Source of the DNA: Bacteroidales bacterium | GTDB lineage: Bacteria; Bacteroidota; Bacteroidia; Bacteroidales; F082 | DNA length: 37,363 bases | Direction: 5' to 3' | NCBI GenBank assembly: GCA_017439405.1 | Contig: JAFSJF010000019.1 | Location: 1 to 37,363 of the forward strand | Part shown: piece after piece, positions 1-29,869 of the stretch | How positions within the stretch are numbered: the stretch's first letter is position 1 | How the letters are laid out: each line of letters begins with the position of its first letter | Notes under the pieces: model-generated | Seen by the model: the letters and a program-made list of their open reading frames with translations, nothing else | The model's database searches: none | What the model was told of the DNA's origin: nothing | Program-made: the position numbers and the translations under genes

Positions 1-241
1 AGCCTTTCCTGTTTCGCGCAATCTTGATGTTGTCGGCCACCTCAAACTTGAACAAGCCCAAGGAACGGCCATCGTCAAGGCGAATCACTCCCACTTGTCC
101 GCCGCTTTTCACCAAAGCCGCCTCAATCTGTATGGGTTTCGTCAGGTAATCGATTTTCAGGAACATCGTTCCAAGAAGGTCTTTCCACTTTTCGAAATCG
201 AATTTCGACGACAATATATGCTTTAATTCTTGCTGGTTCAT
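1..241 (-). CDS. N-terminal fragment of an Eco57I-like DNA methylase (partial)
   Basis: An open frame starts at the ATG at 241-239 on the minus strand and runs off the left edge, giving 80 residues. It begins MNQQELKHIL and contains EVADNIKIARNR. This start, with a small beta-rich block before 'EVADNIKIARNR', resembles Eco57I/type IIG-like adenine-specific methylases and methylase-endonuclease fusions of restriction and phage-defence loci. The SAM-binding and NPPY motifs would lie outside the window, so methylase activity is inferred and not seen. It lies 11 nt after the stop of the AlbA-type ATPase gene, in the same orientation, so co-transcription is likely. It could be a stand-alone methylase or an R-M fusion. 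Confidence 0.7.
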   Translation of the reverse strand, partial: MNQQELKHILSSKFDFEKWKDLLGTMFLKIDYLTKPIQIEAALVKSGGQVGVIRLDDGRSLGLFKFEVADNIKIARNRKG

Positions 242-252
242 AGTTGCAATGA

Positions 253-2259
253 TTATTGTTTTTTCTTCGTGGTGTATTTTTGGTTGGGGTGGTTGAGCAT
301 TTCAGGGATAGTGTAGAAGAGTTTGCCCTGGGCTATTAACTTGTTTAGATACAAATATCTAACGGAAGAAGTTTTTCTATTTATAAGTTTTGCTATTTCC
401 TTAAGCGATAAAGGATTCCAATTACACAAATCTATAATCAACCTTTCCATTTCCTTGGGATTAGCACGCTTGCCCAGTTGTTTTATTCTTTCTTTTAATT
501 CCAATGGCAAATGGTCACCTCTACTATTAAGGCCGCCACCTCTACTATTAAGGCCGTCACCTCTACTATTAAGGTCGCCACCTCTACTATTAAGGCCGTC
601 ACCTCTACTATTAAGGCCGTCACCTCTACCATTTTCTTCGTTAGCTCTACTTATTTCTCCGTCAGCTCTATACATTTCGCCATTAGCTCTATACATTTCT
701 CCGTCAGCTCTATACATTTCTCCGTCAGCTCTATACATTTCTCCGTCATTTTTGCTAATATGAGGCTCTAAATTCGGCCCGGCAATATAATAAGCATTTC
801 TGCTTTGTCCCTTCAGCTCAAACAAACCCATCTCACACATACGATGAAGGTCGAAAGTGGCTTTACGGGAGGTGATGTCGCTATTCAGTTGGCGATAAGT
901 GATGTTGTCAATGGCTCCAAGTTCTCTGACGAAAATCAACGATAGTCTTTGTTCATTGTTTAATTCATGTTGGGCAAATAACGAGAGCCATTCGATATCT
1001 TCTTTGCCCAATAAATGATGGAACAGCAAACGGATTGTAAACTGGTTGGTTTCTCTATTCGATTCAAATGTTGGAGGCATCAACTTCGCCTTTTTCATCT
1101 GTTTACGCATTGTTTTGATGCCTGAACCTTTGGTTTCAGCCAAATTGGTTTCGTGGAATATGGAACTGATATACTGGTTTCTCAATTCGGAGCCAGGCTC
1201 GCCAAGTCGCTCTGGCGATTTCAGCGAATATCCAGGATTTATGATTTCCAAACGATTCGAATACCTGATTATCTGAATGGGCTGGTTCACTCTGAATGAA
1301 CGGTGAATAAACGCATTAACAATGGCTTCACGCAATGTTTCATTGGGAATGTTGATAGGTGTTGAGGCTTGCAGGTTGCCGTCTTTAAGTTCAAAGCCTT
1401 TGGGCAAATCATCTGTTATTGCATTCAATGCACGGTTCACCAAAAGAATAAATGCGCCACGCATGTCAATCGTCGATTCGAAACGCCTATCGGGATTCTC
1501 AACCCATCTGTTACCCTGAACTCGGATATAATCGACACGCAAGGCTGGCATTAGTCGGCGCAACGCCATTGACTTGCCGAAAACAATCAATCCCGTGTAT
1601 GTAAGCACATAGGCGCCCGTCCTGTCTTTCTCACAAGCTCTTAATGCCAGGAGTAAATTGGTGTCATCGTAGGTTAACTCTTCAGCATGGGGATTCACTT
1701 TTTCACGAAGTTTTCGGTAATAGGAAACGGCATTTTCGTCGATGTCGTCTAAACTTGAACCTTTTACGAGTGTGCAATCAAAACTTTCAGCTGAAGAATA
1801 AAACACAGGCATGTCATCTTCAGAACACTTTTGGTCAGAAGGACCTATTCTACGATAAGCACCATGGGGCAGGCCTCTTTTTTCAAAATAAATGGGTTTT
1901 TGCGAAGCGGGAGCCTCGTCCACTTTTACCACGACAACCGTTTTGCCATCGACAACCTCTGTCTCTATTTGAGGACGAATACGCACATTGAAAACCGATG
2001 CACATTGATTGGCGATGTCGGTTTGGATTTTATCGGGATTTGCAATATTTTCAGGCTCGTAATGCGGTAAACCGTTTTCGTCAAAGCCTTTCCTGACAGC
2101 CCCCAACAAAACATATCCACCGCCCAAATCAGGTTCATTAGAAAACGCACAAATGGTTTCCATAATGCTTCGCCCGACTTCGGAAGCCTTTTTTGCCTCG
2201 ATTCTGACGCTCTCGTCATAGGAATTCAAATCCTCGAATAGTTCCTGTGCAGTTCTCAT
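253..2259 (-). CDS. Schlafen/AlbA_2-type ATP-binding protein with heptad-repeat linker
   Basis: The protein has 668 residues from the ATG at 2259; a TTG at 2268 is in frame but less likely. Residues 1-160 look like a Schlafen AlbA_2 domain ('EAKKASEVGRSIMETICAFSN', then 'GGGYVLLG'). Residues about 310-430 look like a HATPase_c_4 domain ('NETLREAIVNAFIHR', 'ETKGSGIKTMRKQM'). A winged-helix segment follows. Residues about 505-581 are a tandem heptad repeat. The C-terminus (about 605-668) is a second helix-turn-helix ('LSLKEIAKLINRKTSSVRYLY'). Such proteins are often annotated as transcriptional regulators or ATP-binding proteins and are frequently embedded in restriction loci; the molecular role is not established. 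It sits between helicase and methylase genes with 11-nt gaps on both sides. Confidence 0.85.
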   Translation of the reverse strand: MRTAQELFEDLNSYDESVRIEAKKASEVGRSIMETICAFSNEPDLGGGYVLLGAVRKGFDENGLPHYEPENIANPDKIQTDIANQCASVFNVRIRPQIETEVVDGKTVVVVKVDEAPASQKPIYFEKRGLPHGAYRRIGPSDQKCSEDDMPVFYSSAESFDCTLVKGSSLDDIDENAVSYYRKLREKVNPHAEELTYDDTNLLLALRACEKDRTGAYVLTYTGLIVFGKSMALRRLMPALRVDYIRVQGNRWVENPDRRFESTIDMRGAFILLVNRALNAITDDLPKGFELKDGNLQASTPINIPNETLREAIVNAFIHRSFRVNQPIQIIRYSNRLEIINPGYSLKSPERLGEPGSELRNQYISSIFHETNLAETKGSGIKTMRKQMKKAKLMPPTFESNRETNQFTIRLLFHHLLGKEDIEWLSLFAQHELNNEQRLSLIFVRELGAIDNITYRQLNSDITSRKATFDLHRMCEMGLFELKGQSRNAYYIAGPNLEPHISKNDGEMYRADGEMYRADGEMYRANGEMYRADGEISRANEENGRGDGLNSRGDGLNSRGGDLNSRGDGLNSRGGGLNSRGDHLPLELKERIKQLGKRANPKEMERLIIDLCNWNPLSLKEIAKLINRKTSSVRYLYLNKLIAQGKLFYTIPEMLNHPNQKYTTKKKQ
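516..746. repeat. 21-bp in-frame tandem repeat array (11 units)
   Basis: Eleven head-to-tail 21-bp units lie inside the AlbA-type ATPase gene. On the plus strand, units at 516-641 read CACCTCTACTATTAAGG plus four bases (the last unit diverged). Units at 642-746 read CAGCTCTATACATTTC plus five bases, with the first diverged and a few T-for-C starts. Translated on the minus strand these become two blocks of heptads, (D/N)GEMYRA and GDGLNSR. The two share the frame (D/N)G-x-x-x-R, so one ancestral unit probably expanded twice. The period is a multiple of three, so gain or loss of units changes linker length without frameshift. Confidence 0.95.
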
Positions 2260-2270
2260 AATCGGCAAAT

Positions 2271-5200
2271 TTACGAATTAAAACTTTCCGAAATGATGAT
2301 TTCGGGATGGATTTCCTTTTTCGCTTGAACGATGCTGCTGTTTGCCGCCCTGGATTCGTTCAAGTTGACGGTATCCAAAGGATACGCTGAAATGATGTTT
2401 ATCATTTTCTCCAAAAGAACTGCGGGCTTAATCGGTGTCTTTTTGACCGAAGTCTTCAACTTGTTCACATCCCTTTGCAACTGCTGGAACTTACCCGTGG
2501 TGATGGCCCGCTTGGCTTTGTGAATCAGTTCGGTTTCCTCGTCGGTGATGTTGGGAATGCTCAAAAAACCGTCCAAATAGGCAATGGCCTTTTTCTCGTT
2601 CGGGCCTTGCGCGACATTCACTTTGCTTGTCGTGGCTTTTGTGTCTTCCTCCTGTTCAGCAAAGACCTCTATCGCTCTTGCAACCTGCTGATGGTGCAGG
2701 TCGTGAAGTGGTATAGACTTTTCATCGGCTCTTGCCTCAAACTCCTTCACGGCTTCAAGGAATGACAATTCTTCAATGCTTCCATCCTCGCGCACAAACG
2801 TAAAAGCATCCCGACGGTTGTTGCGGATAAAAGTCAGTGTGCAATGCCGCTTAACTTTGTTTTTCCTTCCCACTCGTGCCCGTAGAGGGAGTTTGGCAAT
2901 TGACTTTATCAAATCGGGGTCTTCTTCCTTAAGGTTGCGTAGCCACATCAGATAACGCAGTTTCTCGTCGCGTTCCTCGTCAACATCCTTGTCGAAAAGG
3001 CCAAAGGTCTCTGGGGTTTCATCTGTGGAATAAATCTGGCTGTCCTCGCCTAAAGCCGCATGGAAGGCAAAAAGTTTCATTTTTGCTTTTTTCTCTAACT
3101 CAATGTCGTTGTTGACTTTGGCGGTTGGGAAAAAGTTGAAGATATAAATCTTCTTGGCCGTGCTGCCGATACGATTGACACGCCCAATGCGCTGCATCAG
3201 TCTTGTCGAGTTCCAAGGTGTGTCATAGTTGACAATGATATTTGACCTATGAAGATTGACACCTTCGGCAAGCACTTCTGTAGAAATGATGATGTCGAAA
3301 TCGTTTTTCCTTTCTCCCTCATAGTTGGCGTCAAAATTCTCCCGCAACACTGGCATCATTTCATTGCGATTGGCACTTTGAACGGTCAGCAAACGAGTGT
3401 AGCCTTCTTTCTTCAAAGCATCCGAAAGATATTTTGTCGTTTCTTTGCTTTCGGAAAAAACCAAAAGTTTACCCTCATTGTTGATATCCTTGTCAAACAG
3501 TCTGTTTTTCAGATAATCTAAGAAAATATCCAATTTGGGGTCATAGTCGATTTTGCTCCAAGACTCAACAAGTTCTTTCAACATCGCATCATCCATCTCC
3601 AGTCCTTCTTTGAAACCCGGCAAAAAGTCATTAGGGCTGCAAATCTCAATGGTCGGGTCTGCATAGATGGCTTCGTTGATCAGTTTGATCAGCTCTTCTT
3701 CTTTGCCATTGCTGAGCAATTCGTTGACTTTCAGGTTTGGAGCAATATAAATAGTTCCTTTTTCAAACATGTCCAACATCACTTTGTTGGCCTGATAATA
3801 CCTGTTGAGCGACTGCTTGAAGGCGAAGAAACTGCTATCAATGCGTTTGACCAACAAAGTTTTCATGATTCCAGCCAATTCGTCTGAAATCCTGTCCGCA
3901 TTCTTGTATTTTTTCTTCTTATCAGGATTGAGATATTTGATGGCTTGGTACCGGAAATAGTTCAGCCCTGTTTCTTTTCCTTTCAAGTAAACCAGCGTTT
4001 TGTCATACAGTTGCTCTAAAGTCGCATCGAGTTGATAATAGATTTTTTCTGGCGATTGAACGTCTGGAAAAACGACACCTTGTTCAAGCAAATCCTTCCT
4101 GTAGGCTTCATTTTCCATCAAGTCTGTACGGGTACGGCGCACGGTCAGCGGCTCGACCACTTTCACGCGGATTTTTTCATATATGGCCTTGATTTCCTTA
4201 GAAATCAGATCCATATCTTGCTCCTTTTTCAGTTTTCTGTATTTCTCAATCTGCTCACGGAAGAAACGCTGCAAGTTATTTTCTTCCAAGGTGCTGTCCT
4301 TTGAATCCTGGAACAGATAGACCAGATTGGCAATGTCTTCAGGGCGGTTGTTCAAAGGTGTTGCCGAAACAAGCATCACTTTCTTGTCGTAGTATCTTCC
4401 ATCGGGATATTGTCTTCGTGTCTTCGTCTTACAGATTTTCTGGAGTTCATTATACATGCTTGCCGTGTCTGACCTGAACTTATGTGCCTCATCCACAATC
4501 ACCAAATCATAAAGGCCTGCATCCTTAATTTTATGTAAGCTACCATTGGTGACAATTTTAAAGTTGTCAATCTTAAAAGTGGACAAGGTTTCTTCCCAAT
4601 TCTCTTCCAAGGCTGGCGGGACAATCACCAATGTATGAGAACGATAGGTCGGGAAACCATTGGAAAAGAAGAACTTCTTTGCAATCAATGCCGCTACTAC
4701 TGTTTTTCCCAAACCGACCACATCAGAGAGGAAGAAACCATTGTGTTTCATCATTTTGGCATAACCATCGTTGACAGCATCCACCTGATAGGACAACTTT
4801 TTGTAGCCCTTGGGCAAATCCGAGACCGAATTGGGGTCAAAATCAATGCTCTTGCCAAAATACTCCAGCAAAAACTTCAAATAAATCTGGTAAGGAGTGA
4901 AATCAGGATTCAAATAGGACTCCTGCTTTATCTTCTCAACATGTGTCAAATCAATTTCCACTGCCTCATCCCAAAGCCTTTCAAAAGTTTCTGTGGCAAA
5001 CTGAATATCATCATCATAACGCAACTCCACATTGAATTCGAAATTCTTTTCTAACCCAGCTTCGGTTAAGTTGCTTGAACCTGTAATGACAGAGCCATAA
5101 CCATGCGGATGATAGAATTCTTCCCTGAAAATGTAAATTTTGGCGTGAATATTCTGCTTGGGGTGGATGCGCATTTCAATCCGACGAGTCATAATGTCTT

Positions 5201-5558
5201 CAATGAATTGATACATGCCTTCTTCCACTTCCTTGTCATATTTCGCTTCTTGGATGTTTTTCTTGATTTCCTTGAAGAACTCCTCCTGTGATTGTTCAGC
5301 GTTGGGATTGAACAAAAGCCCCTGCTGATTGGCCTGATAAGTTAATTTGTCAATATCAATGCCTACTAAAAACCGGATTTTCGGGGTTTGCTGAATGAAT
5401 TTCCTGATTCTGAAATAGCCAGAAGCACGAAAGTATCCGACAAGCGCATCAAAGAAATGCACTTTCTTGTATTTGAAAACGCCTTCTATCTTTTCAAGAA
5501 GCGTGTTTTGACTTTCGTTTGTAAAGAAATTTGTTCCCATAGTTTTCAGTTTAACCAT
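2271..5558 (-). CDS. PLD-domain SNF2-family helicase
   Basis: A protein of about 1095 residues. The N-terminus has a single phospholipase-D-like half-site: HAKIYIF at about 138-144, then GSSNLTEAG at about 160-168. An SF2/SNF2 helicase core follows: Walker A VVGLGKT near 280, DEAH box 'VIVDEAHKF', motif III 'SATPLNN', and motif VI 'QRIGRVNRIGS'. Such PLD-helicases are known from restriction and DISARM/Hma-like defence loci, where they are thought to translocate on and degrade unmodified DNA; activity here is inferred. The start is the ATG at 5558 or the one at 5540. The first lies 3 nt after the carboxylase stop, so there is no room for an independent promoter between the genes. The gene is AT-rich compared with that upstream neighbour. 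Confidence 0.9.
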   Translation of the reverse strand: MVKLKTMGTNFFTNESQNTLLEKIEGVFKYKKVHFFDALVGYFRASGYFRIRKFIQQTPKIRFLVGIDIDKLTYQANQQGLLFNPNAEQSQEEFFKEIKKNIQEAKYDKEVEEGMYQFIEDIMTRRIEMRIHPKQNIHAKIYIFREEFYHPHGYGSVITGSSNLTEAGLEKNFEFNVELRYDDDIQFATETFERLWDEAVEIDLTHVEKIKQESYLNPDFTPYQIYLKFLLEYFGKSIDFDPNSVSDLPKGYKKLSYQVDAVNDGYAKMMKHNGFFLSDVVGLGKTVVAALIAKKFFFSNGFPTYRSHTLVIVPPALEENWEETLSTFKIDNFKIVTNGSLHKIKDAGLYDLVIVDEAHKFRSDTASMYNELQKICKTKTRRQYPDGRYYDKKVMLVSATPLNNRPEDIANLVYLFQDSKDSTLEENNLQRFFREQIEKYRKLKKEQDMDLISKEIKAIYEKIRVKVVEPLTVRRTRTDLMENEAYRKDLLEQGVVFPDVQSPEKIYYQLDATLEQLYDKTLVYLKGKETGLNYFRYQAIKYLNPDKKKKYKNADRISDELAGIMKTLLVKRIDSSFFAFKQSLNRYYQANKVMLDMFEKGTIYIAPNLKVNELLSNGKEEELIKLINEAIYADPTIEICSPNDFLPGFKEGLEMDDAMLKELVESWSKIDYDPKLDIFLDYLKNRLFDKDINNEGKLLVFSESKETTKYLSDALKKEGYTRLLTVQSANRNEMMPVLRENFDANYEGERKNDFDIIISTEVLAEGVNLHRSNIIVNYDTPWNSTRLMQRIGRVNRIGSTAKKIYIFNFFPTAKVNNDIELEKKAKMKLFAFHAALGEDSQIYSTDETPETFGLFDKDVDEERDEKLRYLMWLRNLKEEDPDLIKSIAKLPLRARVGRKNKVKRHCTLTFIRNNRRDAFTFVREDGSIEELSFLEAVKEFEARADEKSIPLHDLHHQQVARAIEVFAEQEEDTKATTSKVNVAQGPNEKKAIAYLDGFLSIPNITDEETELIHKAKRAITTGKFQQLQRDVNKLKTSVKKTPIKPAVLLEKMINIISAYPLDTVNLNESRAANSSIVQAKKEIHPEIIISESFNS

Positions 5559-5561
5559 CAA

Positions 5562-7169
5562 TCACATCCTAAACACCCCAAACTGCTGCGGCGGGAACGG
5601 CTGGTTCAGCGAGGCCGCGATGCCGAGAGCGAGGATCTTGCGCGTGTCGATGGGGTCGATGATGCCGTCGTCCCAAAGGCGCGCCGTGCTGTAGAAGGCA
5701 GAGCCTTCGTAATCGTACTTAGCTAAGATTTCCTTCTTCAACTGCGCGATTTCGTCGGTCGGCACCTCCAAGCCTTTGTATTTGTATTGGTCTTCTTTGA
5801 CAGTGGCCAAAACGCTGGCCGCCTGCTCGCCGCCCATGACGGAAATCTTGGCGTTGGGCCACATGAACAACAGCCTCGGGCTGTAGGCGCGACCCGCCAT
5901 GCCGTAGTTGCCCGCACCAAACGACCCGCCGAAGATGACCGTGAACTTCGGCACGTTGGCATTCGAGACCGCATGAACCATTTTCGCGCCGTCTTTGGCG
6001 ATGCCGCCTTGCTCGTACTGCTTGCCGACCATGAAGCCCGTGATGTTCTGCAAAAACACCAACGGGATGTTTCGCTGGCAGCAAAGCTCGATGAAATGTG
6101 TGGCCTTAAGTGCTGATTCTGAGAACAATACACCAAAGTTGGCGAGGATGCCCACGGGGAAGCCCATCAGGTGGGCGAAGCCACAAACGAGGGTGGTGGC
6201 ATAGCGTGACTTGAACTCCTGGAAACGGCTGCCATCGACGATGCGGGCGATGATTTCCCTCGGGTCCACGAGTTTGTGGAAGTCGATGGGGGCGAGGCCG
6301 TAGAGGTCGTGAGGGTCGTATAAAGGCGCCTCAACGGGCAGTATGTCAAGTTTTTGGCGATGGCTTTTCTCCAAGGTCTTGAAGATGTTGCGGCAGATTT
6401 GCAGCGCGTGTTGGTCGTTCTCGGCCAAGTGGTCGGCGACGCCCGAAATCGAGGTGTGCATCTCGCCGCCACCCAATTCCTCCGCCGTGACGACCTCACC
6501 CGTGGCGGCCTTCACCAATGGCGGACCACCGAGGTAAATCGTGCCTTGGTTGCGCACGATGATGGTCTCGTCGCTCATGGCCGGCACGTAGGCGCCGCCC
6601 GCCGTACACATACCCATCACGATGGCGATTTGCGGGATGCCCATTGCTGACATGCGCGCCTGGTTGTAGAAGAAACGGCCGAAGTGGTCGCGGTCGGGGA
6701 AGACGGTGTCCTGCTCAGGAAGGAAAGCGCCGCCGCTATCGACCATATAGACGCACGGCAGGTGGTTTTCCATCGCAATCTCCTGTGCGCGAAGGTGTTT
6801 CTTCACCGTGTACTGCATATAGGTGCCGCCCTTCACGGTGGCGTCGTTGGCCACGATGACGGCCTCACGGCCTTGAATCACGCCGATGCCCGTGACGATG
6901 CCCGCCGAGGGGAAGTCGTCGTTGTAGGTACCGTAGGCTGCCATCGGCGAGAGCTCCAAGAAGGGCGTGTTCGGGTCAATGAGCAGGTCGATGCGCTCGC
7001 GGGCCAACAACTTGTTGCGTTTCTTGTGCTTGGCCACGGCGCTTTCGCCGCCGCCTTGCATCGAGGCCGCCATCGCCTCGCGGTATTGCGCCATCAGCGC
7101 GAGCATGTTCTTCTCGTTTTGGTTGAACTCCTCAGAGTCGGTGCGTATGTTGGATTTCAGTACTTGCAT
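5562..7169 (-). CDS. Acyl-CoA carboxylase carboxyltransferase (beta) subunit
   Basis: The protein has 535 residues and belongs to the biotin-dependent carboxyltransferase family, most like methylcrotonyl-CoA carboxylase beta. It transfers carboxyl from carboxybiotin to an acyl-CoA. Visible landmarks are '[17 protein letters not shown]' near the N-terminus, '[11 protein letters not shown]', '[16 protein letters not shown]', the second-domain '[13 protein letters not shown]' and '[15 protein letters not shown]'. The start at 7169 is preferred over an upstream TTG at 7196 because a -33/-7 promoter occupies 7196-7225 and the length then matches the family. No biotin carboxylase or biotin-carrier gene is in the window; the downstream neighbour is a helicase gene instead. 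The substrate (methylcrotonyl-, propionyl- or another acyl-CoA) is not settled. Confidence 0.9.
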
Positions 7170-7195
7170 AATAATGTTAGGTGTTATTGGAAGCA

Positions 7196-7225
7196 CAAAA
7201 ATACATAAAAACCGCCAAATTCAAA
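7196..7225 (-). promoter_or_regulatory. Bacteroidota promoter for the carboxyltransferase gene
   Basis: Read on the minus strand, TTTG at 7225-7222 (-33) and TATTTTTG at 7203-7196 (-7) are separated by 18 nt and lie about 27 nt before the ATG at 7169. This fits the Bacteroidota TTTG/TAnnTTTG consensus and supports the chosen start. Confidence 0.65.
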
Positions 7226-20341: not shown

Positions 20342-23300
20342 TCAATTACCAACTTTCACCCGCATTCCATCCGAATACGCACTGAACTCGGGCGCATACT
20401 GGCACTGGATCAAGGCATAGCCGTTGTTCAAGTGGCCTTCCTTGGTCACGAACATGCTGTACTCCAGTTGGTGCGTGCCTTTAGGCAGGCGCTCGATGAA
20501 GAACTCCATGTCGGTGTCGGTGTTGCTCTGGTAGTAGCTCATGCGGTCGTTGTACTCGTAATGCGAGATTTGCTCTATCGGCTCGAAACCGGCGGCACGG
20601 AGGTCTTTCACGAAGACATAGCTCATGTCCTGCTCGTTGGTGAAAGTGATTTTCACGGTCAACTTGTCGCCCACCTTTAAGGCTTGGTTTGTGACGGGAA
20701 CTAATTTCCTGCCCTTTTCATCCACCGTCTCCACAAACAGTTCGCGCTTGATGGTGAAGCCCGCCTCACTCTGCTTCACTTCATCGATCGGGACGAAATA
20801 CTGGCGGAACAGGCCACCCCACACCAAGTGGTTGGTCGGGTTGTTGACGGTGAGTTGGCGCATCTCCGAGGTCACTTCGTCGGCATTCCAGCGGCGTTGG
20901 ATGAAACCCGTGCCGGCCACGCCACCTTCAGTATTAATAGGTGTGTTGCCGAAACGCAGCGTCACTTCCTTGCCTTCGGCAAACCAGTCGCTGCCGCGCA
21001 TCAGCAGGGCGTAGCAGGCATCGGCGGTGGAGGCAGAGTTTTCCCAACTGTTGGTCTGCTTCTGGGTGAGCAGCCACACGCGCAGATAGTCGATCATCTC
21101 CTCATCCTTGTCGATTTCGGCGAAGGCGGCCATGATGTTGGCGTGGGTGGCGATGTGCGACTCAAACGAGAAGTATTTCTTCGGCCAGTACATGCCGATT
21201 TGCTCGTTCTTTTGAGCGGTCTCCTTGAAACTCTGGATCATCAGCTTGGCGGTCTTCTCGTTGCCCATGCGGTGGAGCACCAAGGCGCCCTTCGAGCGCA
21301 TGTTGAAGTTGAACGAGGTCCAAGTTTCGTCAAGGCTCTTGAGGTAGTATTTCTTGGCCGTGGCGAAGTCCTTGTCAGAGTTCTGTTCCTTGAAAAAGCT
21401 CAAGGCATAGAGTTCGTTCAAGGTGCCGCTGCCGATGGGCCAGTCCTTGCCCTTGCTGAGGCGTTTCATCTCGCGGTAGGTCTCGGCCACCTCGTATTCG
21501 AGGTAACGCACGGCCTTGTCGCAGATGCGTTGCGCCGTGTTTTGGTCGGCTTGGCTCAGCGAACTCCACGCGCCCATTTTCTGCAACTTGCCGAAGCCGG
21601 CGAGGATGTAGGTCGAAATGAAGGGACTTTCGGGCATTCCGTCCATCCACGACCAGCCGCCGTTGTATTTCTGCTTCTGCTCGATGAGCTGCAAGGCACG
21701 GGTCTGCTGTCCGCGCAGGTTGTTGATTTCAAACAGGTTGGCGATGCGACTGCGTTGCTCGGTCTCGCTCTTGGCTTCGAGCACCCACGGCGTTTCTTGC
21801 AGCATGATGGCCTTCAGGTCTTGGTCCTTTTCGAGTTGCGAGAGCAGGGCATCGGGCGTCTCGATTTGCCATTTCTTGATGTAAGCCAGCAGGTTCGGGA
21901 TGTGATCGGCGATATAGGACGAGAGCGTGTTGGCGTAGAACACGTAGAAGGCGGTCTCGGCACGGTCGGTGCTGACGTTGGCTAGATAAGGCAAGGCCTG
22001 CACGGCGTACCACACGGGGTTGGTGCTGAAGTTGAGCGTCAGGCTGTAGTCGCGCTCGTGGCTGTCGGGGTTGGCGATGGCCTCAAAATCAAAGACTTGT
22101 TCGGTCTCGGCCTTCACGGTGATGGGCAGGGTCTGCGTCATGAAGATTTCGCTGCTCAGCACGGGCAGGAGGTGCTGCTCGGCATCGCTGAACGCACCCG
22201 CGTAGGCCGTGAAGCGGAAGGCCAAGAGGCTGAGGTCGTACTTTCCGGCCACTTTCCAGCGCACTTCCTTGCTGCGACCGGGTTGGATGGTCTCCATCGG
22301 AATCACGGCATCACTGACGAGCAAGTTGACGGGCTGCATCGTGCCTGCATCAAAGATTTCGAGTTTCGCCTTGGGCGCAACGGGTTCGTCGCCCGTGTTG
22401 ATGACGTTGGCCACGAACCAAAGTTCATCGTTGTCATACATATAGCGCGGCATGTCGGCCATAATCATCACGGGCTTGGAGGAAGTGAAGGTGTATTCGT
22501 TGGTGCCCGTCTTGCGGTCTTTCGAGTAGGCCAACAGCATCAGGCGCCAGCGCGTGAGGGCGTCGGGCATAGTGAAACTGAAGGTTGCGCTGCCGTCTTG
22601 GTTGGTGCGCAACTGTGGGAAGAAGAAGGCCGTCTCGTTGAAGTTCTCGCGGAGCGTGGGCTCAGCGTACTCGTCTTTTTTGGATGTTCCAACTTTAGGA
22701 ACTTCATAATCTACGATGTCTGAACTTTCCAATTTTGAGAAATCCAATTCTTCTTCAGCACCTTCATCATCGATCACTTCTCTAAGCATCGCATCATTGG
22801 TCGCTGTTGTTGCGGCCATTGGCATAGCGACTTCTTCCACCATGTCATACATCACGCGACCTGCACCGAGACCTTTATACATTCGTCTGCCATAACCATA
22901 CCCGAAATCGAAGAACGGTGCATCGGAAGGCAAGCTGAAGTTGAAAAGTTCGGCGAAGTTGAAATAGCCATTATGGGTTGCTGAAGTAGTAAAATGGTGT
23001 CCATCGGTATTGAAAGGGAAGCCGAGGTCTCCTCCTGAAGGTTTCATGTTGAACCACCAATGGTTACGTGCAAATTCATCCAACGATGCATCATACATTC
23101 CAGCCAACAATGCGGCTTCCAAAGGTTTGTCCTTGTAGTCGCGGACGGTTACTTCCCAAGTTTCTTCTGAGCCAGGACTGAGCTTGTCGCGCATCGTGGC
23201 GAGTTTCACATTGAGGTCGTAGTTGTCGAAAAGAACAGTGACACGGTCAATGCCTACATGCAGCGAATTTTCTTTGATGAAAGCCGTCTTCAGGCACATT

Positions 23301-26300
23301 ATGCCTCGGTCTTGCTCGGTCACCTTATATGTGAAAGTCTGCACCTCGTTGTCCAAGGTAATCCATTTCTCCATACGGATTTCGTCGCCGTGAAGCAACT
23401 GCACCCACATCCTTACCTCTTTGGCCGAAGAGCCGAGGCTGAAACGGAGTTCGTCGCCAGAACGGACGCTTGAATTGTCGAACCGTTTCCATTCCATTGC
23501 GGTGAAAGGCAACTGCTTGGAATCCTTTTCGTAAATGGTGAAATCTCTTGTCGTCACCGCCAACGGGTCGTCGAGGCTCTTGAGTTCCACGATGTATTTT
23601 CCAGGTTGCAAGGTCTTACCTTCCAAGAACTTCGTTTTGTCGTCCACCATGATTTCATCTTCAAAAATCAAGGTTTTTTGAGGTCCCTGAGCTTGTCGAA
23701 GGGCCGGCGTTTCGACAGGCTCAACGACCGGACTGTCATAGAAACTCCATTGTGGGAACAATCTTTCGATTTCCTCATCGCTAAGGATTTGACGGTCAAA
23801 TTTCAGGCTATAGTGCATCGCCTCGAAATAGTTGATTTTTTCGTTGTTTTCGATGCGATAAATCTTGCGCGAAACACGGCTCTTGGCGGGTTGCCAGCTG
23901 AGGTTGCTCACGCTGATGTTGTAGTTGCCGATTTCTGATTTCTCGATTTCCGAAGGCAAGTCGGTGCTGATGGCGATTTCGTTGTAGCCAGCTCGGATGC
24001 TGTAAGTGTCGCTATGCGTCTCGCCCTGCTTGCTTGTGGCGGTCACCTCGATTTCGTAGGTGAACATGGGCTGTTTTTCGGGCGCGATGCTCAGCGAAGG
24101 CTTCAGGTTGAAGGTGACGGCGAACTTGCCGCTCTCGTCGGTGCGGGCCTTGCCGTAGGTGATCTGCTCGTCCTCGACAGTCGGGTACCACCACCACCAG
24201 CAACGCCACGGGAACGAGGTCTTGCGTACCACGCGGTAGGTGTATTCCACATCGTCCAAACCGAAGCCGGCGTAGGCATCCACGCTACCGTGTACCGTAA
24301 CCTCTTGGTTGAGTTTGTATTGCTCTTTCGGACGCTCAAAGTTCACCTCGAAGGTCGGGCGCTTGTATTCCTCCACGCGGATAATGGTGAGGTTGCCATG
24401 TTCGGCATTGAGGCGGAACACACCGTTCAAGCGGTCGGTGGGGATGACGAACGAACCACTGAACGAGCCGTATTCGTCAGTGGTGAAGTTAGCCGAACTG
24501 ATTTCCTGCCAGTTGGCGTCAAGGAAGGAAACCCTCTCGCCGTAGCCGTTCACCAAGGTTTTGTCGTCGCCTTGCATCCTCCTCACGATGCCTTGGAAAT
24601 AGACGGTCTGTCCTGGACGATAGATGGCGCGGTCAGTGAACAAAGTGGTCGTATAGTGTTCATTATCATTCTTGTAGCGCGGATTGAGGTAATAACTGTT
24701 ATTGGCCAACAAGACATCACCATCCTTGCGGAGGTTGATGAAAAAAGAATTATTGGTCTTTTTCGACAATTTCACCACGCCGTTGCGGTCGCTCTTAGGC
24801 GTTTCGATGATGATGGTCTTGTACTCGCGCGCCTTGTAGTCATATTCCCTGCACCACAATTCCACCGTCACGCCCTCCACGGTTTTCCCCGTTTTGCGGT
24901 CCACGGTGACCACAGTCATTTGGTCGTTCTTTTGGTCGGTGATGTAGCCCAATTGCGACACTTGGAAATTGAGCACCAGCATCTTATCCTCATCCTTGTT
25001 ATCCTTCTTGATGTTGCCGACGAGGTAATAGAAGCCGCGCTCCAAGGCAGGCAAAGCGATTAAAGTGCTGTGCTCGCGGTAGTCGGTTTCGGTGGGCAAG
25101 GTCAATTCCTGTTCGGCGACGACTGCTTTTTTGTTCAATTCCTTCAACAAGTCCTCTTTGTTCAGTCTGTCCAGTTTTTCAAGGTCTTTCTCGCTGACTT
25201 TCACTATTTTATAATAAGGTGCGGTCACGTTTCGGTATTCCAAGACGGCGGGAATGGCCTCGTCGGGCAGTTGCACGGAGTTCAAGCTGAGGTCGATGCG
25301 CGGTTCCTCGATGCGCTGGATGAGGTTCTGGCAGTTCTTTGCGCCTTGCGACTTGGGGAACTTGGCGATGGCTTGTTCGCACAACTGCTTGGCTTTCTTG
25401 TAGTTGTCGAAATAGGTGCTGTCCTCGCTGTGGTTTTCGTATTGGTTCATCATGTTCCGCGCAATCAGCGAAGTGATTTCCGCCGAAAGCGGGTTGTCCT
25501 CGTGTTGCGTCTTCAGGTTTTCCATCGCGGCTTGGTATTTGTCGTCTTTACCCAAAATGCCGTTGACGAAGCCGAAACGCTTGAAGTCGTTGTAAATCAA
25601 CACGTCCTCGTTGTCATTTTGTAGGTTGTAGGCGATGAGGTCTTGATAGATTTTCAGGCATTTGATGAGCGGATTGTCGGCATTGCCCAAGTCGGCTTTC
25701 ACGAAATCCTTGGCGGGCAGCCACCAGACGTCGGTCTCGCCCTCCACGTCGTCGGCATTGCATTGTAACTGGTAGTATTTGGCCACACGGTGGAACATGA
25801 ACTCGAACAGCGAGGCTTCGTATTCAACGTGTTCTGTGGCTTCCTTCGAAAGGTTGTCGAAAAGCACCAAAAAAACCTCGGTCTTGGCCTGTTTCAGTGC
25901 GTCGACGGGTGCCAAAGCCTCGGCATAATGCTGGTTGATTTTCGTGCGGAAGCTCTCCTTGTCCCAATATTTCATCTCCACCTTGCTGAGGTCGCCGCCC
26001 TCGATGGGCAGGTTCTCGCTGATGCGCCAGTCGTTTTGGCTCAGGTAATCGGCGTAAGCTTTGGCGAGTTCCTCATGCAGCAAGGCGTCGTGAACTTCGT
26101 CCAGCTGCCCCACTTTCGTCTCAAGGTATTGGATGAAAGCCTGTTGAGGGTCGTCCTCCACGGTAAACTGCATGATGTTTTGCCGATAGAGGTAGGTCTT
26201 CAGCAATTGGGTCTGGTTTTTGTCCTTAGTTGCCTGTTTTTCAATGGCATTAAGTTCCTTCTCCGCCGATTCCGGCAAGTTCTTTTCGAGGTTTTCCTTA

Positions 26301-26404
26301 ACTTTTTTCCACATATCCTTATAGTCGTTTGTTGGCGATTTGAAGGCGAGCAGGCCGACGATGGCAGCTGCAACGGTTGCGATGATGATGAGCGTGTGTT
26401 TCAT
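20342..26404 (-). CDS. Alpha-2-macroglobulin family protein lacking the thioester motif
   Basis: The protein has 2020 residues with an N-terminal signal/anchor (MKHTLIIIATVAAAIVGLLA, no lipobox). Residues to about 400 are helical and TPR-like. MG-type beta domains include 'LFTDRAIYRPGQTVYFQGIV' near 595. The A2M domain lies near 1265 ('TAFFFPQLRTNQDGSATFSF', 'MPDALTRWRLM'). An alpha-toroid region with 'YNGGWSWMDGMPESPFISTY' follows. Family members entrap proteases in the periplasm or outer membrane. At about 1478, where relatives have a C-x-E-Q thioester, the sequence is 'ANVSTDRAETAFYVFYANT'. A REP-like hairpin is translated in frame ('PVVEPVETPALRQAQGP', near residue 900). A divergent promoter is shared with the polyprenyl synthase gene. 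Confidence 0.92.
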   Translation of the reverse strand: MKHTLIIIATVAAAIVGLLAFKSPTNDYKDMWKKVKENLEKNLPESAEKELNAIEKQATKDKNQTQLLKTYLYRQNIMQFTVEDDPQQAFIQYLETKVGQLDEVHDALLHEELAKAYADYLSQNDWRISENLPIEGGDLSKVEMKYWDKESFRTKINQHYAEALAPVDALKQAKTEVFLVLFDNLSKEATEHVEYEASLFEFMFHRVAKYYQLQCNADDVEGETDVWWLPAKDFVKADLGNADNPLIKCLKIYQDLIAYNLQNDNEDVLIYNDFKRFGFVNGILGKDDKYQAAMENLKTQHEDNPLSAEITSLIARNMMNQYENHSEDSTYFDNYKKAKQLCEQAIAKFPKSQGAKNCQNLIQRIEEPRIDLSLNSVQLPDEAIPAVLEYRNVTAPYYKIVKVSEKDLEKLDRLNKEDLLKELNKKAVVAEQELTLPTETDYREHSTLIALPALERGFYYLVGNIKKDNKDEDKMLVLNFQVSQLGYITDQKNDQMTVVTVDRKTGKTVEGVTVELWCREYDYKAREYKTIIIETPKSDRNGVVKLSKKTNNSFFINLRKDGDVLLANNSYYLNPRYKNDNEHYTTTLFTDRAIYRPGQTVYFQGIVRRMQGDDKTLVNGYGERVSFLDANWQEISSANFTTDEYGSFSGSFVIPTDRLNGVFRLNAEHGNLTIIRVEEYKRPTFEVNFERPKEQYKLNQEVTVHGSVDAYAGFGLDDVEYTYRVVRKTSFPWRCWWWWYPTVEDEQITYGKARTDESGKFAVTFNLKPSLSIAPEKQPMFTYEIEVTATSKQGETHSDTYSIRAGYNEIAISTDLPSEIEKSEIGNYNISVSNLSWQPAKSRVSRKIYRIENNEKINYFEAMHYSLKFDRQILSDEEIERLFPQWSFYDSPVVEPVETPALRQAQGPQKTLIFEDEIMVDDKTKFLEGKTLQPGKYIVELKSLDDPLAVTTRDFTIYEKDSKQLPFTAMEWKRFDNSSVRSGDELRFSLGSSAKEVRMWVQLLHGDEIRMEKWITLDNEVQTFTYKVTEQDRGIMCLKTAFIKENSLHVGIDRVTVLFDNYDLNVKLATMRDKLSPGSEETWEVTVRDYKDKPLEAALLAGMYDASLDEFARNHWWFNMKPSGGDLGFPFNTDGHHFTTSATHNGYFNFAELFNFSLPSDAPFFDFGYGYGRRMYKGLGAGRVMYDMVEEVAMPMAATTATNDAMLREVIDDEGAEEELDFSKLESSDIVDYEVPKVGTSKKDEYAEPTLRENFNETAFFFPQLRTNQDGSATFSFTMPDALTRWRLMLLAYSKDRKTGTNEYTFTSSKPVMIMADMPRYMYDNDELWFVANVINTGDEPVAPKAKLEIFDAGTMQPVNLLVSDAVIPMETIQPGRSKEVRWKVAGKYDLSLLAFRFTAYAGAFSDAEQHLLPVLSSEIFMTQTLPITVKAETEQVFDFEAIANPDSHERDYSLTLNFSTNPVWYAVQALPYLANVSTDRAETAFYVFYANTLSSYIADHIPNLLAYIKKWQIETPDALLSQLEKDQDLKAIMLQETPWVLEAKSETEQRSRIANLFEINNLRGQQTRALQLIEQKQKYNGGWSWMDGMPESPFISTYILAGFGKLQKMGAWSSLSQADQNTAQRICDKAVRYLEYEVAETYREMKRLSKGKDWPIGSGTLNELYALSFFKEQNSDKDFATAKKYYLKSLDETWTSFNFNMRSKGALVLHRMGNEKTAKLMIQSFKETAQKNEQIGMYWPKKYFSFESHIATHANIMAAFAEIDKDEEMIDYLRVWLLTQKQTNSWENSASTADACYALLMRGSDWFAEGKEVTLRFGNTPINTEGGVAGTGFIQRRWNADEVTSEMRQLTVNNPTNHLVWGGLFRQYFVPIDEVKQSEAGFTIKRELFVETVDEKGRKLVPVTNQALKVGDKLTVKITFTNEQDMSYVFVKDLRAAGFEPIEQISHYEYNDRMSYYQSNTDTDMEFFIERLPKGTHQLEYSMFVTKEGHLNNGYALIQCQYAPEFSAYSDGMRVKVGN
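23682..23729. repeat. REP-like hairpin inserted in frame in the macroglobulin gene
   Basis: The arms GGTCCCTGAGCTTGTCGAA (23682-23700) and TTCGACAGGCTCAACGACC (23711-23729) pair at 16 of 19 positions around a GC-rich 10-nt loop. The 48 bp equal 16 codons and give the peptide 'VVEPVETPALRQAQGP', which breaks an otherwise ordinary beta-domain sequence. Confidence 0.85.
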
Positions 26405-26428
26405 ACTACAGGAGTTTTAGACATGAAC

Positions 26429-26469
26429 GCAAAAATAGCAAATATCGTGCAAATTATTTCTATTTTTGC
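26429..26469. promoter_or_regulatory. Divergent promoter pair forming an inverted repeat
   Basis: GCAAAAATAG (26429-26438) and CTATTTTTGC (26460-26469) are perfect complements. Each contains a -7 element: TATTTTTG at 26437-26430 on the minus strand for the macroglobulin gene (ATG at 26404), and TATTTTTG at 26461-26468 on the plus strand for the polyprenyl synthase gene. The -33 elements would have to overlap the opposite -7 region. Confidence 0.65.
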
Positions 26470-26473
26470 AGCC

Positions 26474-27304
26474 GTGAAATTTTTGGAGCAAATCATATCG
26501 CCCATCGCCACTGAAATGGCACGGTTTGAAGCCTTCTTCGCGCAAACGCTGAAGGCCGACACCGAACCGATGGACAGCATCATGCGCTATGTGCAGGAAA
26601 CGAAAGGCAAACGCCTGCGACCCATCCTGGTGCTTCTCAGTGCGAAGCTGTTTGGCGAGCCTAACGCGCTGACGATGCGTGCTGCCGCCTTCGCGGAAAT
26701 GGTGCATAGCGCAACATTAATCCACGACGACGTGGTTGACGGCGACGACCAACGGCGCGGTCGGGCCTCGGTGAAGGCGCGCTTCGACAGCCGCTCCGCA
26801 GTGCTGGCCGGCGACTACCTCCTGGCCAAGGCCATGCTGCTCATCGCAAACGACACGGCCGTCCTCAACGAGATGCTGCACACCGCCACCGCCATGAGCG
26901 AAGGGGAACTGATGCAAGGGTCGGTAGGGCTGTCGTACCACGGCAGCCGCAATGACAATCCCAATGAAAGCGGCTGCCACAATGTGACAGCCCTACAGAC
27001 CCATTATCTCGACATCATCACCCGCAAAACCGCCATGCTGATGCAATCCTCGTGCAAAGCGGGAGCGATGTCGGTCGAAGCCTCTCCCGAACAAATCAAA
27101 AAAACCGCTGACTTCGGCCTCCTTGTCGGACAAGTTTTCCAAATGCGCGACGACATCCTCGACGGCGAGAACACCGAATTGGCCAAAACCTTATTGCCCA
27201 ACCGTCTCGAGAAGGCAATGAAGGCCTTGGAAGGCTTCCCTCCAAACGAGACCGTCGAGGCCTTGCGCGAATTGACACAGTTTTGCGCCAAGCGTAAGCA
27301 ATAA
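26474..27304 (+). CDS. Polyprenyl diphosphate synthase (trans type), atypical
   Basis: The protein has 277 residues from the GTG at 26474; from there the N-terminus ('KFLEQIISPIATEMARFEAF') reads like the family, whereas the in-frame ATG at 26423 lies upstream of the -7 box. It adds isopentenyl diphosphate to an allylic chain for quinone or carrier-lipid tails. The first Asp-rich motif 'IHDDVVDGDDQRRG' and the second 'FQMRDDILD' are intact. Two oddities stand out. About 28 residues ('SVGLSYHGSRNDNPNESGCH' onward) are encoded by an 85-bp palindrome. After DDILD the usual GKPxGxDxxxGKxTLP segment is absent, and the chain goes almost directly to the C-terminal helix. Whether it is active is uncertain. 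Confidence 0.85.
   Translation: MKFLEQIISPIATEMARFEAFFAQTLKADTEPMDSIMRYVQETKGKRLRPILVLLSAKLFGEPNALTMRAAAFAEMVHSATLIHDDVVDGDDQRRGRASVKARFDSRSAVLAGDYLLAKAMLLIANDTAVLNEMLHTATAMSEGELMQGSVGLSYHGSRNDNPNESGCHNVTALQTHYLDIITRKTAMLMQSSCKAGAMSVEASPEQIKKTADFGLLVGQVFQMRDDILDGENTELAKTLLPNRLEKAMKALEGFPPNETVEALRELTQFCAKRKQ
26918..27002. repeat. 85-bp palindromic element translated within the polyprenyl synthase gene
   Basis: The 33-bp arms 26918-26950 (starting GGGTCGGTAGGGCTGTC) and 26970-27002 (ending GACAGCCCTACAGACCC) are complementary at about 26 of 33 positions around a 19-nt loop. It falls between 'MSEGELMQ' and 'YLDIITRKTA', which are normally close together in the family, so it reads as an in-frame insertion. 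Confidence 0.85.
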
Positions 27305-29800: not shown

Positions 29801-29852
29801 TATTGTTTTTGAAAAACTGATATATTTTTGTAAAAACACAGGTTGTTCTATG

Positions 29853-29860
29853 TATTTTTG
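29853..29860 (+). promoter_or_regulatory. -7 element of the fusion-helicase gene
   Basis: TATTTTTG matches TAnnTTTG and ends 9 nt before the ATG at 29870. TTTG at 29827-29830 is a possible, slightly distant -33. This supports ATG 29870 over the in-frame codon at 29843. Confidence 0.6.
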
Positions 29861-29869
29861 CGCCAAATT

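What the first reader, a model, noticed from the sequence alone, without database searches (positions are those of the whole stretch)
1..5558. Helicase / AlbA-ATPase / methylase cassette with matched 11-nt gaps
Seen: three minus-strand genes encode a PLD-SNF2 helicase, a Schlafen/AlbA_2-HATPase protein and an Eco57I-like methylase start, with exactly 11 nt at both junctions. Known: PLD-helicases plus methylases occur in DISARM and Hma-like defence loci. Inference: this is a defence operon in which the AlbA-type ATPase is a core part or an embedded regulator. The exact composition may be a variant type.
Basis: partly seen in the sequence, partly recalled or inferred. Interest (0 to 1): 0.8.

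Follow-up and report, generated by a model that had tools for sequence, protein, structure and literature searches.

The report
Switchable restriction operon with embedded Schlafen gene
A gut-type bacterium carries a DNA-cutting helicase and a DNA-tagging enzyme that probably work together as a phage-restriction system; the tagging enzyme seems able to change which DNA sequence it recognises by flipping a gene segment, and between the two genes sits an exchangeable Schlafen-like gene that is probably an extra or back-up defence gene rather than part of the core.

Summary
In detail: PLD-SNF2 helicase (HEL), Schlafen/AlbA_2-HATPase protein and methylase start on one strand, 11 nt at both junctions. 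The window is a whole contig cut inside the methylase. Contig C75 of the same genome overlaps it by exactly 89 nt and completes a 1,110-aa Eco57I-type methylase (family model: PglX-like fold), followed by an inverted second specificity domain and a serine recombinase. In relative G127 expressed and inverted domains are exchanged; two divergent loci differ by a clean 3.4-kb inversion whose crossover lies in a 10-nt repeat inside the methylase gene. So specificity very likely switches by DNA inversion. Of 64 relatives showing HEL and methylase, 36 have nothing between them, 12 an AlbA-HATPase gene, 16 something else (YhcG nuclease, Fic, RhuM, KilA-N, unclear). AlbA also occurs without HEL: an exchangeable accessory, not core. 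DISARM, Hma/BR and BREX are not met (no MZB or DUF499 in the assembly, no PglZ at the locus). Best reading: phase-variable restriction-modification with an embedded back-up effector; function untested. Schlafen accessories are published for BREX-like loci; the invertible methylase with PLD-SNF2 helicase looks like a new variant.

The parts
2271..5540 (-). HEL, 1089-aa PLD-nuclease/SNF2 helicase, first gene of the cassette
   Evidence: Pfam PLDc_2, SNF2-rel_dom, Helicase_C. In 13 aligned relatives H132, K134, N157, E168 (PLD), G276/G278/K279/T280, D350/E351/H353 and the SATP and QRIGR-NRIG motif positions that are listed invariant.
253..2259 (-). AlbA-HATPase protein (668 aa): N-terminal Schlafen AlbA_2 domain, GHKL-type ATP-binding domain, repeat linker, C-terminal helix-turn-helix-like region
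   Evidence: Pfam SLFN_AlbA_2 48.9 bits, HATPase_c_4 67.5 bits; N-terminus 160 bits to PDB 2kyy; E16, E21, K23, E311, N315, G378, G380 invariant in 13 sequences. The C-terminal HTH is read from sequence and weak Sigma70_r4 / Fic-like_C hits only.
514..748 (-). two in-frame 21-bp tandem arrays inside the AlbA gene (7-residue repeats, linker)
   Evidence: TRF: 514-633, 5.7 copies; 617-748, 6.3 copies. The corresponding stretch is 55 to 104 residues long in the 10 homologues compared.
2..241 (-). start (80 aa) of the Eco57I/PglX-like methylase; continues on contig C75 (L150:2-3181) to 1110 aa
   Evidence: exact 89-nt overlap of contig ends; reading frame 1110 aa when the two contigs are joined; Eco57I 131 bits. 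Outside the window on L150: inverted second specificity domain 3516-4430 (-), a further inverted C-terminal piece 3178-3450 (-), serine recombinase 4439-5050 (-).
5562..7196 (-). carboxyltransferase-like gene that borders the cassette (not part of the system); HEL starts 21 nt after its stop (or 3 nt, if the earlier ATG is used)
   Evidence: in 5 of 26 relatives examined this gene is followed directly by the 763-aa gene that follows the cassette on C75. The gene name is recalled from its sequence; no family search was run on it.

Best explanation
This is a restriction-modification-like defence cassette inserted behind a housekeeping gene. The methylase (Eco57I catalytic domain with a TaqI/PglX-type target-recognition part) marks host DNA (inferred). 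HEL, a SNF2 translocase with a BfiI/NgoFVII-like PLD nuclease domain, is the likely cutting subunit for unmarked DNA (inferred). The 3' part of the methylase gene, which encodes the recognition domain, is very likely exchanged by a serine recombinase with an inverted silent copy just downstream, so recognition specificity switches (in this genome inferred from anatomy and from a reciprocal exchange in a relative; an inversion between two related loci is shown for a divergent branch). The AlbA-HATPase protein between HEL and methylase is not needed by most relatives of the system; it occupies a cargo slot that other loci fill with a YhcG nuclease, Fic, RhuM or KilA-N gene or leave empty. Most likely it is a self-contained back-up effector: a Schlafen-type RNase kept in check by an ATP-binding sensor and released when the restriction system is inhibited or overrun, by analogy with PrrC in a type IC locus and with published Schlafen genes in BREX loci (inferred).
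Against: No phage, methylation or cleavage data. In this genome the repeats flanking the two specificity domains are imperfect (91 nt, 76%; longest exact parts 14 and 13 nt), so the switch may be slow or frozen, and switching was not observed here. The third acidic residue expected in an active Schlafen RNase (recalled) is not conserved in the long AlbA type (GAVRKG), so RNase activity is doubtful. The N-terminal domain of the methylase was not resolved by the fold search, so a nuclease of its own is not excluded. Only 12 of 64 relatives carry AlbA, 4 of them the window's long type; and only 2 of the 11 loci with invertase and inverted pieces (9 relatives plus G000 and G127) carry AlbA in the slot. 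HEL-AlbA also occurs without a methylase (G099/L042: McrBC genes instead), which does not fit a system that needs self-marking. The AlbA structure model failed (mean pLDDT 41).
Confidence: 0.6

Rival explanations
1. AlbA-HATPase is a transcriptional or expression regulator of the operon: the AlbA_2 and C-terminal helix-turn-helix parts bind DNA and ATP binding gates it. It would hold HEL down until the methylase has marked the genome, or after a specificity switch.
For: Putative HTH at the C-terminus and GHKL fold; genes of this kind are often annotated as transcriptional regulators (recalled). Position inside the operon with 11-nt spacings.
Against: 36 of 64 relatives manage without any middle gene. 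Full-length AlbA stands without HEL or methylase in G098 beside a BglI-like restriction system and in G091. Some other loci already have an XRE-type gene just upstream of HEL (cluster c6), the usual regulator position.
Confidence: 0.25
2. AlbA-HATPase is an independent one-gene defence system that merely settled in a defence hotspot; it has no functional link to HEL and methylase.
For: Among 12 family genomes with a relative at 57% identity or more, 5 have it without HEL beside it (G098, G063, G091, G122, G086), some broken. The site behind the carboxyltransferase-like gene takes other cassettes too.
Against: In 7 of the same 12 it directly follows HEL, in G124 a HEL of only 31% identity, in the same order and strand. 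Two AlbA subtypes, about 23% identical, occupy the same slot. Chance insertion would not favour this point.
Confidence: 0.25
3. HEL, AlbA and methylase are three obligate subunits of one machine, a DISARM/BREX-like complex with AlbA as core ATPase.
For: Shared strand, tight spacing, and the order HEL-AlbA-methylase in G000, G127, G109, G095 and G124.
Against: Optional and replaceable middle gene; L065 has HEL 95% and methylase N-terminus 98% identical to the window's but a different AlbA subtype (24%).
Confidence: 0.07
4. The inverted methylase piece and recombinase are debris of a past insertion, with no switching in this lineage.
For: Imperfect flanking repeats in C75; a second, partial inverted piece of 90 aa.
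Against: Uninterrupted 305-residue frame of the silent domain, uninterrupted recombinase frame, and the reciprocal exchange in G127. In L103/L104 a 10-nt identical core was enough for crossover.
Confidence: 0.2

Closest known systems
Pin17FIII system of Prevotella intermedia 17 (PMC5608340; passages read)
   Same: A IIG-type methylase of about 1117 aa (coordinates 22231-25584), a second methylase-like ORF on the opposite strand 24 bp downstream (25608-26525), and an upstream SNF2/RAD54 helicase; cloned methylase makes m6A at GGYGAB, while two further motifs in the native methylome stayed unassigned.
BREX-related (BR) Type-2 systems (PMC12839542, section 30)
   Same: HKD/PLD nuclease at the N-terminus of a Swi2/Snf2 helicase, paired with an N6 methylase.
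   Different: BR systems centre on a DUF499 ATPase, and Type 2 also has DUF3780; DUF499 is absent from this genome's assembly and no gene of that kind lies in the cassette.
Schlafen-histidine-kinase-wHTH accessory genes of BREX/BR loci (PMC12839542, section 35 part 1)
   Same: Same domain order as the middle gene; embedded in or next to RM-like loci; read by those authors as back-up RNase effectors.
   Different: Here the host system is PLD-SNF2 helicase plus Eco57I methylase without BREX or DUF499 parts, and the slot is shared with YhcG, Fic, RhuM and KilA-N genes.
DISARM class 1 (DrmD, DrmMI)
   Same: SNF2 helicase and Eco57I-type methylase; best NCBIfam hit of HEL is DrmD.
   Different: DrmD 144 bits against a cut-off of 610; no MZB domain (DrmB) in the assembly; no DrmA or DrmC gene in the cassette.
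Type IIG enzymes and BREX PglX/BrxX methylases
   Same: PADLOC IIG model 479 bits for the C75 methylase; fold nearest to CamA, PglX/BrxX, MmeI and LlaGI.
   Different: Separate nuclease-helicase gene; no conserved D...ExK signature seen in the N-terminal domain of 30 relatives.
Invertible type I hsdS genes (for example Streptococcus pneumoniae, PMC4948785; title and abstract start only)
   Same: Specificity switching by DNA inversion between expressed and silent recognition domains.
   Different: There separate hsdS genes; here the C-terminal domain of a fused methylase, with a small serine recombinase.

Membership tests
DISARM | DrmB with MZB/DUF1998 domain | tested here: not met
   PF09369 0 matches in the own genome, while 8 of 14 control genomes ring. 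The genome is an incomplete assembly (98% complete).
DISARM | DrmD-type helicase | tested here: not met
   NF038317 144.3 bits, curated cut-off 610.
Hma / DUF499-centred BR systems | DUF499 ATPase | tested here: not met
   PF04465 0 matches in the own genome; only 1 of 14 control genomes rings, so the control is thin. No such gene between the flanking genes of the cassette.
BREX | PglZ in the locus | tested here: not met
   The only PglZ match lies on contig C56, not on C156 or C75. BrxC was not searched for.
Type IIG restriction-modification enzyme | IIG family by profile | tested here: met
   PDLC03601 479 bits for the C75 part of the methylase.
Type IIG restriction-modification enzyme | active endonuclease domain in the same polypeptide | tested here: inconclusive
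   No conserved D...ExK seen in the first 130 columns of 30 relatives; the N-terminal domain was not covered by most rows of the fold comparison.
PLD-superfamily nuclease, BfiI/NgoFVII-like (HEL N-terminus) | H-x-K ... N ... E active site (BfiI residues recalled) | tested here: met
   H132, K134, N157, E168 invariant in 13 relatives; RE_NgoFVII 21.3 bits is below its cut-off of 23.8, PLDc_2 is above.
Bacterial Schlafen (AlbA_2) proteins | AlbA_2 domain | tested here: met
   PF04326 48.9 bits, cut-off 25.3.
Bacterial Schlafen (AlbA_2) proteins | three acidic catalytic residues of the RNase (recalled from mammalian Schlafens) | tested here: inconclusive
   E16 and E21 invariant; the third acidic position is not conserved in the long type. 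The alignment there is ambiguous by one residue.
Invertible (phase-variable) methylase loci | silent inverted copy, inverted repeats and recombinase | tested here: met
   L150 and 9 of 64 relatives; the repeats in L150 are imperfect.
Invertible (phase-variable) methylase loci | both orientations observed | tested here: met
   Between genomes: L103 versus L104, and the exchanged domains of G000 and G127. Not observed within one genome.
Anti-phage defence | protection in a phage assay | not testable with these tools
   No experiment available.

The most novel reading that the evidence does not exclude
The cassette is a self-diversifying restriction system whose middle slot is a cargo bay for dormancy or suicide effectors. 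The effectors (Schlafen-HATPase, YhcG nuclease, Fic and others) act as fail-safes for a system that changes its own specificity: after a methylase inversion the host genome is for a time unmarked for the new site, and the embedded effector senses this self-restriction crisis, or phage inhibition of the nuclease-helicase, and pauses the cell.
Probability: 0.1. Interest if true: 0.85.

Novelty: new variant of a known kind. Interest (0 to 1): 0.58.

Why it matters
If right, a common but unnamed Bacteroidota restriction system combines three features: a separate PLD-SNF2 cutting subunit, a fused methylase that changes its target by DNA inversion, and a slot for interchangeable accessory effectors. 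It would offer an explanation for unassigned methylation motifs such as those reported in P. intermedia 17 and Rikenella microfusus (PMC5608340), make gut Bacteroidota phasevarions of this type directly testable by long reads, and give a natural series (empty, Schlafen, YhcG, Fic and other occupants at one position) for asking what embedded genes do for a restriction system.

Tried and rejected
Rejected: DISARM, Hma/BR and BREX membership. Rejected as evidence: the matched 11-nt gaps, since 10-13 nt is common after HEL whatever gene follows. The AAA_15/SMC-type ATPase found downstream in 26 of 64 relatives (including L070) was sought in the own genome and gave no match, and none lies downstream on C75.

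Led nowhere: the AlbA structure model (mean pLDDT 41) was not used for a fold search. VIA-align lists no family for methylase residues 1-130, which shows nothing about that part. Literature search returned unrelated papers and one search returned none; one search gave two reviews that I did not open. Searches (titles and abstract starts, plus the passages or sections named elsewhere) showed no paper describing this helicase-methylase pair with an invertible domain; the library is open-access only, and the preprint on bacterial Schlafens cited in PMC12839542 is not held.

Limits of counts: the 75 loci come from six peptide patterns of one HEL and are not independent (L075 and L105 look like one locus in two bins). 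The slot classes were assigned by best BLAST hit to 23 reference proteins and re-counted; L064, L083, L090 and L091 stay unclear. Of the 75, 11 were left out of the slot count: 10 truncated by contig ends, and L042, which has 10 kb downstream but no methylase. L062 has a 111-residue recombinase piece without an inverted methylase piece and is not in the 9. Of 50 genomes with the flanking carboxyltransferase-like gene, 26 new downstream regions were read: 5 empty, 7 with other genes before the 763-aa gene, 14 where that gene was not seen within the stretch.

Corrections made on checking: my notebook gives 12-35 nt for the gaps at the empty sites; the sequences give 11-33. The inverted repeats of 43-49 nt in L103/L104 are not the pair that recombined; the crossover pair shares GACCCTCAAA only.
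Full report
Observation. The three genes, strand and 11-nt gaps are as described. HEL has PLDc_2, SNF2 and Helicase_C domains; the middle protein has SLFN_AlbA_2 and HATPase_c_4. PADLOC and NCBIfam give only partial, sub-cut-off matches to known defence helicases. The window is all of contig C156 of a 3.53-Mb, 159-contig assembly (98.18% complete, 5.21% contaminated), so the methylase is cut by the contig end.

Completing the left side. The methylase of relative L070, searched in the own genome, hit the start of contig C75. C75 begins with exactly the 89 nt that end the reverse-complemented window, and the frame runs through to a 1,110-aa methylase. The C75 part matches Eco57I (131 bits) and falls just short of the TaqI_C cut-off (24.4 against 26.5), and matches a IIG model with 479 bits. 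Further support for the join: C75 then carries a 763-aa gene that in five other genomes directly follows the carboxyltransferase-like gene bordering HEL in the window. An alternative join through a shared repeat is not strictly excluded.

What follows the methylase. Within 1.9 kb downstream lie, on the opposite strand, a 90-aa piece with a TaqI_C-like end (25.9 bits against 26.5), a 305-residue open frame 42% identical (304 columns) to the methylase's own C-terminal specificity region (TaqI_C 56 bits for its 235-aa ORF), and a 203-aa resolvase-family serine recombinase. No AAA_15-type ATPase, present downstream in 26 of 64 relatives, is there or elsewhere in the genome.

Evidence for inversion. 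In relative G127 the same locus spans contigs C23 and C52, which overlap by 55 nt at an exact 25-nt inverted repeat in the methylase; its expressed specificity domain is 68% identical to G000's inverted one (45% to the expressed one), and its inverted domain is 55% identical to G000's expressed one (43% to the inverted one). In a divergent branch (HEL about 32% identical), L103 (Paraprevotella xylaniphila) and L104 (Bacteroides propionicigenes) are collinear except for a 3,382-bp segment that is inverted at 94.8% identity. The crossover lies in GACCCTCAAA, present three times in each locus; sequence on the outer side is unchanged and on the inner side exchanged. Methylase pieces in opposite orientation plus a full-length recombinase are present in 9 of the 64 relatives, none of which has the AAA_15-type ATPase. 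Exact inverted repeats of 26 to 49 nt occur in those nine. Against: in G000 itself the repeats are imperfect (91 nt, 76%).

The middle slot. Of 75 relatives of HEL, 64 show HEL and methylase. Between them: nothing 36; AlbA-HATPase 12 (long type as in the window 4, short type about 23% identical 8); YhcG/DUF1016 8; Fic plus a 338-aa gene 2; RhuM 1; KilA-N 1; unclear 4. L065 shows the exchange clearly: HEL 95% and methylase N-terminus 98% identical to the window's, but a different AlbA subtype between them (24%). The long AlbA also moves on its own. Of 12 family genomes with a relative at 57% identity or more (22 of 173 have any match at 1e-30), 7 have it after HEL, including G124 where HEL is 31% and the methylase 25% identical to the L070 proteins; 5 have it elsewhere. 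In G063 it is broken and sits alone between the two flanking genes; in G098 it is full-length near a BglI-like restriction enzyme and an N6_N4 methylase. In G099 HEL and AlbA are followed by McrBC-type genes and no methylase.

Mechanism. Shown: conserved PLD, helicase and methylase motifs, a PglX/CamA-like fold for the methylase of L070, and inversion between genomes. Inferred: HEL cuts unmarked DNA; the methylase marks self; inversion changes the recognised sequence; AlbA is a back-up effector. E16 and E21 of AlbA are invariant but the third acidic position is not conserved in the long type, so an RNase role is uncertain. The fold of AlbA could not be modelled.

Known work. PMC12839542 (abstract, sections 29, 30, 33, 35 part 1 and passages) reports Schlafen-histidine-kinase-wHTH genes tied to BREX/BR loci in at least 1017 taxa, as back-up effectors, and HKD-Snf2 helicases in Type-2 BR systems. 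PMC8565338 (passages) defines Hma. PMC12707154 (passages) describes PrrC embedded in a type IC locus. PMC5608340 (passages) describes in P. intermedia 17 a IIG methylase with a downstream opposite-strand methylase-like ORF and an upstream SNF2 helicase; the cloned methylase made one motif and two others stayed unassigned. My suggestion that inversion explains those motifs is an inference from the printed coordinates, untested by sequence. PMC5903667 (passages) gave nothing on such loci.

Verdict. A real cassette, correctly spotted; the AlbA gene is embedded cargo rather than core; the more surprising feature lies just outside the window, an invertible methylase. Filed as a new variant of known kinds: phase-variable RM, with a published type of accessory gene.

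Noticed in passing
window 514-748: AlbA carries a linker of 7-residue repeats of two kinds whose stretch is 55-104 residues long in the 10 homologues compared; the repeats are in frame, so they change linker length rather than switch the gene off.
   Followed up: partly
window 5562-5540 and L150:5157: The gap between the carboxyltransferase-like gene and the 763-aa gene is an insertion hotspot: empty (11-33 nt) in 5 of 26 relatives read; in other genomes it holds this cassette, AlbA alone, a BglI-like restriction system, or a 490-aa ATPase gene.
   Followed up: partly
L045-L108: Loci with the downstream AAA_15/SMC-type ATPase (26 of 64) and loci with recombinase plus inverted methylase pieces (9 of 64) do not overlap; they may be two ways of building the system.
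   Followed up: no
L048:10363-13992, L061:18297-21093: Other defence modules sit directly behind the methylase: Lamassu-like LmuA/LmuB with an ABC-3C middle component, and a PRTase-CE plus ORC-CDC6-like pair of which the PRTase matches PADLOC PRTase_III-A.
   Followed up: partly
L042:5366-9056: HEL and AlbA without methylase, followed by an AAA_5 ATPase and two McrBC-type genes.
   Followed up: partly
L157:4225-6453: A lone long-type AlbA gene lies next to RlaP and RtcB RNA-repair genes on the opposite strand; perhaps only a neighbour.
   Followed up: no
window 29843-34558: A 1571-aa ORF with a Helicase_C match; from its sequence it looks like a RecQ-type helicase with further helicase motifs towards the C-terminus (reading by eye, no family search).
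   Followed up: no
L103:7391-8977, L104:7391-8977: In this branch an AlbA-like gene (528 aa, 22% identical) and a 244-aa gene stand upstream of HEL instead of behind it.
   Followed up: no
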